Origin: Micromussa lordhowensis
Taxonomy: Eukaryota; Cnidaria; Anthozoa; Scleractinia; Lobophylliidae
Reading direction: 5' to 3'
Assembly: GCA_964020085.1 (NCBI GenBank)
Contig: OZ026603.1
Span: forward strand, 28,421,952-28,485,951
Length of the DNA stretch: 64,000 bases
A model generated the notes under the pieces. It saw only the letters and a program-made list of their open reading frames with translations. It was not told where the DNA came from and made no database searches. A program made the position numbers and the translations under genes. This document shows, one piece after another, positions 2,971 through 36,547 of this stretch; positions within the stretch are counted from its first letter, which is position 1, and each line of letters begins with the position of its first letter.

Positions 2971-3354
2971 CTCTGAGGATCTGAAATTCGCGACAAAGGA
3001 CGCTCCCAAAGCGCTTCCTATGCCGAACACGACGCTCAGCATGTTAAGTTGAGAGAGATGTGATGATTCGCCGCCTTCTACTTGTCTATTTATCATCTTA
3101 ACTTGGTAGTACCGAATGGCCATCATAACTAGGGTGAAAACGGCAGTCGCGTTGAACAACTCGGCGAAAATGGCTCCTTCGGGGTTCTTGGAAGTTATAT
3201 CGCTAATGGCGGGAACAAAAGGTGAGACATGTCCAGTTGAACGCGCGATGGAGTACGAGAGGACCAGCGAGATTGTGGCTATTAAAATCCATATTAACAC
3301 TATACAACCAAGGCCAGGTCTTAAACAAAACCCGCTCTTTTGTGTATCACCCAT
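2971..3354 (-). CDS. DRAM-like gene A, coding exon 1 (partial gene)
   Basis: First coding exon of a DRAM-family membrane protein, 128 codons from the ATG at 3354. It ends at a strong donor (GAG|GTGAGT, intron starting at 2970) in phase 0, the same place as in genes B, C and D. Visible features are helix 1 at about residues 15-36, the loop motif PFVPAISD at 45-52 followed by a PEG turn at 58-60, helix 2 at 61-82 ending in RYYQ, and helix 3 at 103-124 ending in VANF. Family members are multi-helix lysosomal or plasma-membrane proteins linked to autophagy. The exon with helices 4-6 is not found in the 2.97 kb to the left, so it probably lies outside the window (gene C has a 4.1-kb intron). Alternatively the second exon has been lost. 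The DRAM/TMEM150 family call is firm; the exact subfamily is not. Confidence 0.85.
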
Positions 3355-5647
3355 TCCGTCAGTAAATCTTCGTAATATTTACCCGCTAAGTCATGGCGAG
3401 TGTACTGAGGATACCCCTCAATGCTTAAGTCCGCGTTTGCAAATAAACCTCCTTGAGTGGGCGAGTATGCTAATTCTTTTGAAATCCGTCAGCAGCGACA
3501 AGCAAATCAGGTGCCAACAGCAAACCCGGCGTGTTATTGTCCAATCATTTCAAACAAAAGTGTAATTACTTTGGATAGAAACAACTCTGAATAGAGTTTT
3601 ACAGATGAATTTAATTCCCCTTTGGATAAACTGAAAAAAACCGGGATAATTTATTTCGCGGGAACAAAAGAAAACATCTTTGCCTGCCATATGTTTTCTG
3701 TCATCAATTGTGCGCGATTTAGAGGAAATTTAAATTTCTCAGTTCAATTTTCGCCAGCCAACATATCTTGTTGCCTCATTATCCACCGGACATCTCACCC
3801 ACACAATTCCGGAATAATATCTTGTAATTTCACCTGAGATGTTGAAAGAGAAAAAAAAAGTGGTCTTGTAAACGAAGATGCAGTTCAACATATGCGATAA
3901 AAAGTGACATAACAAAAGAAAATTCAGAGGTATTAATTTCCACAATATAATAACTCCAAGGAGTTTAGAATGCAGTGGGCTTAAAAATAATCCAGATTCT
4001 TTCGTCTTATTTTATTTTATAGTCAGTCCGAACATATCTTTTTTAAATTCAAATCTAATCTGTTTCTTCTTTTGAAAACAATAGAAAGCCCTGAATTTCT
4101 CTTTAAAAGTGGTTCAATCCGAGCACGTGTGCGTTAATGGGATCATTGAACTGGGGTGTAATTGAAATGGAATAAATGATAGACACAATTCTAAATTACC
4201 ATCGAAAAGCGCTAACATTTTATGGCGTTCAAGGATCAAGGTTAGCTTTAGGAAATACGGACTTCTATCATTACAGAAAACTAGTTATCTTTTTATACGT
4301 GTCAGCTATATTTTTGCAATCATTTCAAATGTATCATCACTGCCCAATTCAACTCCATGCTTCTGCCTGCGGTTTCTGCGGCATGAAGCGTCTAAGAGTA
4401 TTAAATCAGTACGTATACCACCTCCTCTGAATGAGATGCTTGTCTCGGCAGGTGTAGCCATCGTTTTGTTATATTACTTTGACTAATTAAACCGAGTACT
4501 TCTGGTTCCTAAGGTAAATCGAGCTAGCAAGACTCCACGAAGACTGGAACCGCGAGAATGGTTCGTTATTTGGCGCGCTTTCCATTTTGCGTGAAAAAAA
4601 CGGTAAGAACTTTCCATCAAGTGGACAGAACAAATTTTCAATAAAAAATTGGACCGGAGGAAAAGACGGGGGCGAGGGGGAGGGGGGTTATTCGAGGGAG
4701 GGAGGGGCACGAGTTTAATTTTCCCAAATCGTGGTCAGATATGGTCGGTTTTAGTACTACATCATTTGCGCGTAAAAAACAACACTAACGCTGTGTCAGT
4801 CCCCCGGAAGTCTCGGAAGGATTCTCTATCTTCATGATGACGTTGATTGTGCTTCAGTTAATTAACCAGCGGATCTTCACCACCATCATTTGCGACGGTC
4901 AATTCCCAGTGCCTGAATGAGTCAATAGTCACTTGCTTGTGATTGAACACGACCAATACCATATATCTTTTGTTGTCTCAGTACCGGCGTCCATTTCACA
5001 GAGAGGGGGAGTGGGCGCTTATTTCAGGGGAGGCGCTGATCTATTAGTAACTTACATTAATGGAATTTCCCAGCCTCTAACTAGACTTCTTCAAAAACAT
5101 GATATTCGAGTGATCAGCAAGCCAGTGAAGACATTACAACAGGCCGTTTCCTTCTTCTAGATCCCGACCTTCGATTGAACTTCAACCAAATGTGGTCTAC
5201 AAAAGATCTTGTGCTGACTGCCCATGGAGTTATGGGCGAAAATGGCAGATGCTTTGAAACTAGAAAAAAAAAGAACACATTAGGAATGTGAAGTCTTACG
5301 CAAGAGCTTCCAACGTTGCTAAGGCAGGCTTGGTTTTCAAATCACTCAATTGACTTAAAAAATTCCCAAGTGATTGACAACGGTTTTTCCGTATTCGCAA
5401 GACACTAAGACCATGACACACCATTTCGATAAATCATGCAGATAACAATTCAAGGCCGCTCCCCAATCAATACTCCATTCTTTTTAAAAAAGAACAATTA
5501 GTTTATTGACACTTATTTCTTTTCCTCCCACCTATTTTTGAATTTATTTGCAGTTGTCTCTACTCATTGAAGAATGTAGTCTGACAGCCGAAAGCTCAGT
5601 TTTAAACTCTATATAGTCAGTGAATTTTTCGCCTGTTTTTAAAAGTC
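3355..5647. promoter_or_regulatory. Head-to-head intergenic region between genes A and B
   Basis: About 2.3 kb separates the start codons of the divergent genes A (minus) and B (plus), so it must contain the 5' regions of both. A pyrimidine-rich acceptor-like site at about 5550 (ATTTGCAG) may mark a 5' UTR splice junction of gene B, about 95 bases before its ATG. A G-rich tract lies at 4660-4710. No TATA box at a convincing distance and no other gene is seen. Confidence 0.35.
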
Positions 5648-34500: not shown

Positions 34501-36547
34501 TAACCACGTCTCATATTCGTTAATATTTATAACTAATTCGTTCGGGGTGGTTTTTACGTCTAAACGGACTGGTTGTGGTTGCAATTTACACTTCCATGTA
34601 CAAACGATCTCGTCCAGTAAGGTTCCTTTAACTAATTTTGAAGGGCGTCGAAATTGACTTGTAAAGTAGACGAACGTGAAGAATTACTTTGAAAACTCTT
34701 TTAATATTCCCCATGTGTTAGGACAAGAAAGAATCGAGTTTCGTGTGTCTTAATGATAGGAGAAGAAAAATGTTCATTTTTACCACGCGACAACAGATGC
34801 GATATGAAAATAACCACGAACCACGATTATTACTAAAATTATAAACACATTTTCATTCGGTTTTTCTCTTGTTGTTATTTTTGTTATTGGGAGTTGTTTG
34901 ATCTTTAGCTAAATTTATCCAGGAACATTATATCGTTAGACTTCCCCATAATCTTTGAATTTATATACATGTAATATTTTGGTGTGGGGAAAACAGATAG
35001 CCGCAAAGCCCCACGCAGTGAAATAATTATAAAAAAAAATATAACAAGAAAATTTCCACGTTTATGCTGTGAATTCGTTACAACCTAAAACGTGCAAACC
35101 AGTCAAACAACAGAACGGGCGGAAACAAAATACAATTTCAAAGTTTACATATTTTTCGTTATGGACTTCGGAATAAACGTCTACAAGAAGTATTTCACGC
35201 AGAATTATGCTCCACTAGTCTTGACTTAATCAACAAAAATCTGAGACTATTTTTATACAAATGGCTGATATATACGAAGCGATACTCGGCAACACATCCA
35301 TGTTAAGAGTATTCAAAATGCCACGTAAAATCGCGATTAAGTGTTAACTAGAATTGAAAATTAGTCAGCTTTTAGCAGACGAAAAAAAACGCCCACAGTT
35401 TCCTTCAATTTCCAAATTTGAATAATCTTAAATTTGCCATTTTGTTTCGAGTCTGAATTTCTCTGAGTGGTTTCTGGCATTGTGTTCTTTCGACTCGAAG
35501 AAAATAGCATCTACTCGCTATTTTGACGGTGGCAAAATTTTAATCTTTGTGTAATCACGCCAGCAGCGACCGTAACTGAATGTAGGTATGCTTGCATCCT
35601 CAAGAAAATTATTTGCTTCGCGATGAGCATCGGTTTTGTGATTCAAATCATTGGATACTTTATAAACGGAGTTAGCGCTCTAACTGCCGAACGGTGAAAC
35701 TGAATGAATGAATTATTTGCACCTGATTCTATACCGAACATAATTTTCTTTTGCACAACTGAAAGAAACAATAGAAAGTTTATTTGTCTATCAATCGATC
35801 CACTCTGAAAGGAAAATTAAATCAATTAGCCTGCATAAATTAGAATAAATTTGGCGCTAAATTTCACTGATATTTTCATTAAAATATGTCGCCCAGTAAA
35901 GGTTTTGTCGGTTTGTGTACTCTTTTGATCAGTTAATATGAAAATTGTTAAAAGGAGACACAGATACGATTAAAATGTAACTTTTACGCTGATAGATTTT
36001 CGGCATGTGGTTTTTTTTAACTTGTTAGAAATCTCCAGTAAATACAGAGTCAACACCCAAAATAAAATAATTCCATTAACAAGCAAAATATATCATTCCA
36101 CGCAAGAAATAGGGGATGTCTCGTATAAGTATAAAGTGAAAACAGCGATAAGTTTGCGCGGGAACGTGGTGAAACTGAACATACCTCGTTGGACGGAAAG
36201 TTAGCGATGATTGAACCGCCAAACGCGCTCACAAGACCAAAGCCCAAACCCAACTTGTTGAAACGGTCGAGATGACGGTCTGCCGAGTCCAGACCTTTAG
36301 TCAACATCTGGAACTGAAGGTAGCGGACGAACAGGCTGAGTACCATCAACACCAGGGAGAAATTGAACAACTCCGAGAAGATGTTTGCCTCTGGGATCCT
36401 GGCGCCAGTGTCGCTTATGGCGGGAACGAACGGGTAGATGTGATCAAGCGAAACGGCGATACCGTAGCATAATAGAAACGTGAAAGATGTGAAAAGCGCC
36501 CAGCAAACAGGAAGGTAACCGTAGCCGAGCGAAAAGTCACTGATCAT
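31592..36547 (-). CDS. DRAM-like gene C, two coding exons, 272 residues
   Basis: Exon 1 is 36185-36547 (121 codons, donor GAG|GTATGT). Exon 2 is 31592-32047 (acceptor TTCTGATTGTCAG|GAA, 151 residues and stop). The phase-0 intron is 4137 bp. This is the most typical DRAM member here: helix 1 at about 11-33, loop-1 motif YPFVPAISD at 38-46 with a PEA turn, helix 2 at 54-77 with RYLQ, helix 3 at 98-117 ending IIANF, HDAG at 129-132, helix 4 at 132-153, helix 5 at 164-187, the WQPSDPGY motif before helix 6, GEW at 220-222, and helix 6 at about 221-238. The tail carries YTNI at 263-266 (YxxPhi). The predicted protein acts in a lysosomal or endosomal membrane and modulates autophagy, by family knowledge. 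The intron hosts at least three foldback elements. Confidence 0.92.
32900..33002. mobile_element. Foldback MITE 1 in intron of gene C
   Basis: The arms begin CAATTAGATTATGAGCTCGA and end with the imperfect complement at 33002. The arms include GATTTCTATCGCG against CGCGATAGAAATC. 103 bp, nearly all stem. Confidence 0.85.
33003..33204. mobile_element. Foldback MITE 2, abutting MITE 1
   Basis: TTTTAGTATAAATCTACTAG at 33003-33022 is perfectly complementary to 33185-33204, with GTTC and GAAC continuing the arms. An inner hairpin CACTATCTAT/ATAGATAGTG lies at 33118-33143. It starts at the base after the neighbouring foldback ends. Confidence 0.85.
33769..34089. mobile_element. piggyBac-like MITE flanked by TTAA
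   Basis: Ends CCCTTTGACGCCC and, at the right, GGTCTACAAAGGG form imperfect terminal inverted repeats. Both sides carry TTAA (33765-33768 and 34090-34093). CCC ends and a TTAA target are hallmarks of piggyBac transposition. About 321 bp with no transposase. Confidence 0.75.
34094..36184. other. Remainder of gene C intron
   Basis: AT-rich, no exon or well-defined element recognised. Confidence 0.4.

What the first reader, a model, noticed from the sequence alone, without database searches (positions are those of the whole stretch)
2971..36547. Local expansion of DRAM-like genes with a uniform two-exon structure
Four gene copies and one relic of the DRAM family lie within 34 kb. In all complete copies a single phase-0 intron separates helices 1-3 from helices 4-6, at the same residue. 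Vertebrate DRAM genes have more introns (general knowledge), so this suggests a lineage-specific founder that spread by local duplication. A multi-copy autophagy-modulator cluster in a cnidarian could relate to stress or symbiont handling, but that is only a hypothesis.
Basis: partly seen in the sequence, partly recalled or inferred. Interest (0 to 1): 0.75.

Follow-up and report, generated by a model that had tools for sequence, protein, structure and literature searches.

The report
Old coral DRAM-like gene cluster
This stretch of a coral genome holds an old group of neighbouring genes for six-helix membrane proteins related to the autophagy protein DRAM; they share one intron that looks inherited from an ancestor with more introns, so the cluster is real but mostly ordinary.

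Summary
The genes are real. B, C and D are complete two-exon genes (280, 279, 272 aa); A has only exon 1 in the window; a C-type exon 2 is a broken relic. All four pass the PF10277 cut-off. The junctions are phase 0 in the loop between helices 3 and 4, but 6 (A, D) or 8 (B, C) residues past the helix-3 Asn, so "same residue" is slightly overstated.

The expansion is old: A, B, C and D each group with orthologs from other records, D also with Nematostella, and 9 of 20 long contigs carry two or more lineages. The two-exon form is not special to the cluster: E (257 kb away) and F (another contig) have it. Gene G in the same genome has six introns, five of them inside human DRAM2 exon-boundary brackets, including the one kept in A-F. 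So that intron is probably ancestral and at least four were lost. A single founder fits but is not shown.

C-type proteins lack the helix 1-2 loop motif (0 of 17). Function is inferred from homology; a symbiosis role was not tested.

The parts
2971..3354 (-). gene A, exon 1 from first Met (128 aa, helices 1-3); exon 2 not in the window
   Evidence: frame and donor GAG|GTGAGT; PF10277 65.8 bits; orthologs P0122, P0129
5648..6019 (+). gene B, exon 1 from first Met
   Evidence: ortholog P0034 72%
6020..6855 (+). gene B intron, 836 bp, phase 0
   Evidence: GAG|GTACTT .. CAG|GAA
6856..7326 (+). gene B, exon 2 with stop (helices 4-6)
22317..23105 (-). relic of a C-type exon 2: pieces at 23105-22913 and about 22526-22317, frames broken
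   Evidence: exon-2 profile E 3e-5 and 9e-6; up to 52% identity over 29 aa to C orthologs
24390..24875 (-). gene C, exon 2 with stop
   Evidence: Oculina ortholog P0036 69%
24876..27068 (-). gene C intron, 2193 bp, phase 0
   Evidence: CAG|GTGAGT .. CAG|GAG
27069..27422 (-). gene C, exon 1 from first Met; lacks the helix 1-2 loop motif
31592..32047 (-). gene D, exon 2 with stop
   Evidence: PF10277 149.1 bits for the joined protein
32048..36184 (-). gene D intron, 4137 bp, phase 0
   Evidence: GAG|GTATGT .. CAG|GAA; P0001 spans the junction on contigs of at most 2196 bp
36185..36547 (-). gene D, exon 1 from first Met
   Evidence: Nematostella ortholog P0005 65%

Best explanation
The window holds an old, conserved cluster of DRAM-like genes (Frag1/DRAM/Sfk1 family, PF10277) of a stony coral. 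Four paralogous lineages (A, B, C, D) and one relic diverged before the species sampled here split; D also has a Nematostella ortholog. The genes have one phase-0 intron in the loop between helices 3 and 4. It is one of at least five introns that a multi-exon coral DRAM gene (G) shares by position with human DRAM2, so it is most likely inherited, and the others were lost on the way to A-F. The proteins most likely sit as six-helix proteins in endolysosomal or plasma membranes and tune autophagy or membrane homeostasis, as human DRAM proteins do; C-type proteins, which lack the helix 1-2 loop motif, are probably altered in that role. Shown: gene models, family membership, orthologs, shared boundary, motif loss in C. 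Inferred: number and mechanism of intron losses, cellular role, and that the host is a stony coral (from the closest named relatives).
For: Family: PF10277 in 4 of 4. Splicing: D ortholog P0001 (98%, 272 aa) on contigs of at most 2196 bp, shorter than D's 4137-bp intron; full-length A-type P0122 on 1477 bp and B-type P0038 on 1079 bp. Boundary: of 78 exon-1-only proteins not encoded by the window, 73 read Val (the GT of a phase-0 donor) exactly at the junction; P0067, P0069 and P0076 read it two residues earlier, P0093 reads Ala, P0073 does not fit. Age: A 100/100, B 100/98, C 100/100, D with Nematostella 91/86. Linkage: 9 of 20 contigs over 200 kb carry two or more lineages. Ancestral introns: G's introns map to human c.77/78, 131/132, 199/200, 339/340, 517/518 and 600/601; human DRAM2 boundaries lie in 131-140, 169-217, 284-362, at 517/518 and in 518-628 (PMC9266529 Table 2, passages). 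E and F have one phase-0 intron at the same place. Six helices with the junction between helices 3 and 4: models of P0001 and P0036.
Against: No RNA of this species was available; the transcript-like contigs are from relatives and their origin is not stated. C has no transcript-like full-length relative, only the annotated Oculina protein P0036. The mapping to human codons uses a DRAM2 sequence recalled from memory, and three of the five human boundaries are known only as brackets of 48-110 bp. The human c.693/694 intron is absent from G and G's first intron is absent from human exon 3; the exon before G's last intron was not found. Support for D is not strong (91/86), B+C as sisters fell from 96/95 to 86/88. 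The tree is unrooted and E and F group with G, human DRAM2 and P0104 (98/97), so intron loss may have happened more than once. Nothing here tests function.
Confidence: 0.77

Rival explanations
1. One reading: a lineage-specific two-exon founder that spread recently by local duplication in this species, perhaps for symbiont handling.
For: Genes lie within 34 kb; fewer introns than G and human DRAM2.
Against: Each lineage has orthologs in other records, D in Nematostella; window paralogs are only about 23-41% identical; two-exon copies occur outside the cluster.
Confidence: 0.04
2. The two-exon genes come from several separate intron losses (for example one in E, one in F, one or more in A-D), not from one founder.
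For: E and F group with G, human DRAM2 and P0104 (98/97) apart from A-D in the unrooted tree.
Against: Every two-exon gene found keeps the same one of five introns, which is more easily explained by one event; all lie on one side of the branch to G, DRAM2 and P0104 (97/91).
Confidence: 0.35
3. One founder arose as a semi-processed retrocopy: a partly spliced transcript of a G-like gene that kept the central intron was reverse transcribed and inserted, then duplicated.
For: Introns on both sides of the kept one are missing; a precedent is rodent Ins1 (PMC8051583, passages).
Against: No retrocopy trace was sought, and none would be expected after so long; stepwise loss explains the same pattern.
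Confidence: 0.25
4. The ancestor had few introns and G and human DRAM2 gained theirs separately.
For: One G intron and one human intron are not shared.
Against: Five of six G introns fall in human brackets, one at the exact base and phase.
Confidence: 0.04

Closest known systems
Human DRAM1/DRAM2 (and coral gene G)
   Same: PF10277-type six-helix proteins; central intron position; G and the recalled human DRAM2 have the loop YIS-D-x-G..P
   Different: A-D fall outside the clade of G, recalled human DRAM2 and P0104 (97/91) and lack four introns shared by G and DRAM2
Nematostella vectensis protein named DNA damage-regulated autophagy modulator protein 1 (P0005)
   Same: 65% identical to D over 92%; same clade
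Oculina patagonica DRAM1-like P0034, DRAM2-like P0035, hypothetical P0036
   Same: orthologs of B (P0034, P0035) and C (P0036); P0034 and P0036 share a contig length
   Different: Oculina has a further B-like gene (P0035) on another contig
Tandemly duplicated genes of corals (PMC10236652, passages seen)
   Same: tandem clusters make up almost a third of the genes in two coral catalogues
   Different: the terms DRAM, Frag1, PF10277 and autophagy do not occur in its main text; supplements not seen
Rodent Ins1, a partially processed retrogene (PMC8051583, passages seen)
   Same: a working copy that kept one intron and lost another
   Different: no retrocopy hallmark was examined here; the coral event would be far older

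Membership tests
Frag1/DRAM/Sfk1 family (PF10277) | profile score above the curated cut-off of 30.3 bits | tested here: met
   A 65.8 (exon 1 alone), B 111.1, C 40.3, D 149.1 bits
Frag1/DRAM/Sfk1 family (PF10277) | six membrane helices | tested here: met
   AlphaFold2 models of the D ortholog P0001 and the C ortholog P0036 show six long helices; A and B not modelled; prediction only
Frag1/DRAM/Sfk1 family (PF10277) | loop motif P-x-I/L-S..P-E between helices 1 and 2 (a pattern I drew up from these sequences, not a curated one) | tested here: inconclusive
   present in A 20 of 20, B 27 of 29, D 24 of 25, but C 0 of 17; 91 of 136 proteins were long enough to count
DRAM1/DRAM2 orthologs proper | same clade as human DRAM2, with its further introns | tested here: not met
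   A-D lie across branches with 98/97 and 97/91 from recalled human DRAM2 and have one intron; G fits
DRAM autophagy modulators | endolysosomal or plasma-membrane location and effect on autophagy flux | not testable with these tools
   known for human members (PMC9544835, passages); no data for these proteins
DRAM1 | induction by p53 | not testable with these tools
   no expression data; DRAM-2 to DRAM-5 are not p53-induced either (PMC9544835, passages)
semi-processed retrogene | poly(A) remnant, target-site duplication or similar traces | not tested
   the event would be too old for such traces

The most novel reading that the evidence does not exclude
All two-exon anthozoan DRAM genes descend from one semi-processed retrocopy of a G-like gene that kept only the central intron; it spread by duplication before the hexacorals diverged and gave rise to a lineage (C) of DRAM proteins without the loop motif, and so probably with a new role.
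Probability: 0.25. Interest if true: 0.5.

Novelty: new member of a known kind. Interest (0 to 1): 0.36.

Why it matters
One genome holds both a multi-intron DRAM gene that shares introns with human DRAM2 and a set of one-intron genes, so the order of intron loss and duplication can be tested directly. The C lineage, without the loop motif, is a natural test of what that loop does. It also cautions against reading the cluster as a symbiosis adaptation.

Tried and rejected
Symbiosis or stress expansion: no evidence found. Of the 15 papers listed only PMC2702317 holds the phrase; its passages list one Aiptasia EST as DRAM among symbiosis candidates. Searches listed no paper on a cnidarian DRAM cluster, which shows only that these listings held none.

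Other genes in the window: 10 of the open frames listed were scanned, none with a Pfam match above cut-off; no tRNA, no Rfam match at gathering score.

Family count not completed: whole-genome searches were answered only for PF10277 and P0122, so further copies may exist. The small exon of G between human codons 173 and 200 was not found. The region 28,165,901-28,302,000 between E and the cluster was not read.

P0104, P0008 and P0014 count under D there and although they branch outside D.
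Full report
What is there. The window lies at 28,421,952-28,485,951 of contig 9 of a 580.8-Mb genome in 1383 contigs. Open frames and splice sites give gene B on the + strand and A, C and D on the - strand. B, C and D have two coding exons, proteins of 280, 279 and 272 aa, and introns of 836, 2193 and 4137 bp. Donors are A GAG|GTGAGT, B GAG|GTACTT, C CAG|GTGAGT, D GAG|GTATGT; acceptors are CAG|GAA (B, D) and CAG|GAG (C); all in phase 0. A has exon 1 only: no exon 2 in 1-2970. The stretch to the left (28,412,000-28,421,951) has 5,000 N next to the window and no DRAM exon in its readable part. 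Another 110 kb to the left (with one block of 2,500 N) and 90 kb to the right hold no further DRAM exon at E <= 0.01. A whole-genome search with the A ortholog P0122 found A's exon 1 and otherwise only weaker matches, 43% identity or less, that lie in or near the exons of other family members. The relic, within 23105-22317 (-), is a broken C-type exon 2.

Family and fold. PF10277 scores are 65.8, 111.1, 40.3 and 149.1 bits for A, B, C and D, cut-off 30.3. Models of P0001 (D type, mean pLDDT 82.9) and P0036 (C type, 80.7) show six long helices; in P0001 these are 9-33, 53-82, 90-116, 125-156, 162-196 and 211-240 (the last with a short break), so the junction after residue 121 is in the loop between helices 3 and 4.

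Relatives. Three protein searches returned 33, 83 and 20 proteins, 136 in all, 4 of them encoded by the window (P0040, P0042, P0065, P0117). Best lineage by BLAST: B 50, D 34, C 32, A 20. By exon content: 21 span both exons, 81 exon 1 only, 34 exon 2 only. Of the 78 exon-1-only proteins not encoded by the window, 73 read Val exactly at the junction, as a phase-0 GT donor must; P0067, P0069 and P0076 read it two residues earlier, P0093 has Ala and P0073 does not fit.

Age. In the tree of 24 proteins A (100/100), B (100/98), C (100/100) and D with Nematostella (91/86) are each one side of a branch; B and C are sisters (96/95), less firmly in the second tree (86/88). Window paralogs are about 23-41% identical. 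Of 20 contig lengths over 200 kb in the tables (window's own left out), 9 carry two or three lineages: BC three times, CD twice, and AB, AD, BD and ABC once each. The cluster is old and its linkage is kept at least in part.

Outside the cluster. The PF10277 search showed E on contig 9 near 28.16 Mb, 257 kb from the window, and F on contig 5; both have one phase-0 intron at the same place (E VANFQ|EDAV, F FEIEK|NWSVH). Two further matches on contig 9 at 32.73 Mb look like PGAP2 (recalled resemblance) with a phase-1 intron nearby. A weak match on contig 11 led to gene G, a multi-exon DRAM gene: exons end at FIT(A) phase 2, WPYI(S) phase 2, MAAAI(A) phase 1, SIVANFQ phase 0 and VFFII phase 1; the last exon found begins at GYNAHLAS, phase 0; one small exon before it was not found.

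Intron history. Exon numbers of human DRAM2 disease variants (PMC9266529, Table 2 seen as passages) put boundaries between c.131 and c.140, c.169 and c.217, c.284 and c.362, at c.517/518, between c.518 and c.628, and at c.693/694. On a human DRAM2 sequence that I recalled (19 of 19 residue labels agree), G's introns map to c.77/78, 131/132, 199/200, 339/340, 517/518 and 600/601: five of six lie in human brackets, one at the exact base and phase; the human c.693/694 intron is not in G. E maps to c.339/340, A-D to c.345/346 and F to c.348/349 in a loop whose alignment is loose. The single intron is therefore most likely the ancestral central one, and at least four others are missing from A-F. 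In a tree of 18 proteins, G, recalled human DRAM2 and P0104 form a clade (97/91) and the two-exon genes lie on the other side, but E and F sit next to that clade (98/97 for the five together), and the root is unknown. A single founder is allowed, not shown. Loss of introns on both sides of a kept one would fit reverse transcription of a partly spliced transcript, as for rodent Ins1 (PMC8051583, passages); separate losses fit as well.

Function. Human DRAM proteins sit in lysosomes, endosomes or the plasma membrane and change autophagy flux, and DRAM-5 (TMEM150A) has been described as the homologue of yeast Sfk1 (PMC9544835, passages). For A, B and D such a role is a fair inference, although they are not orthologs of DRAM1 or DRAM2. 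Of the 91 proteins long enough to count, the helix 1-2 loop motif is present in A 20 of 20, B 27 of 29, D 24 of 25 and C 0 of 17, so C may act differently. D in Nematostella and B in Desmophyllum pertusum argue against a role tied to algae (that these animals lack algae is recalled).

Verdict. A real, old, conserved gene cluster of a known family; the interest lies in the intron history and in the C lineage.

Noticed in passing
window 27069-27422 and C orthologs: C-lineage proteins lack the loop motif between helices 1 and 2 that A, B and D mostly keep (0 of 17).
   Followed up: partly
L035, about 770-6690 (contig 11, about 3,324,770-3,330,690): Gene G, a multi-exon DRAM gene sharing five intron positions with human DRAM2; one small exon not found.
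   Followed up: partly
L012 (contig 9, 32,725,746-32,731,857): Two PGAP2-like exons, near-copies about 5.8 kb apart, with a phase-1 intron close to the DRAM intron position.
   Followed up: no
L009, 4953-9952, next to the window's left end: Exactly 5,000 N abut the window, and 2,500 N lie at L015 7452-9951; A's exon 2 may lie in the first block.
   Followed up: partly
window 16127-16219 and 17622-17714: A 93-nt direct repeat, 85% identical, 1.5 kb apart.
   Followed up: no
P0035 (Oculina) and P0068/P0072: Lineage B has a second copy on another contig in Oculina, and two copies with one contig length in another record.
   Followed up: no
P0093: C-type exon 1 with Ala instead of Val at the junction, which would fit a GC donor or a substitution.
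   Followed up: no
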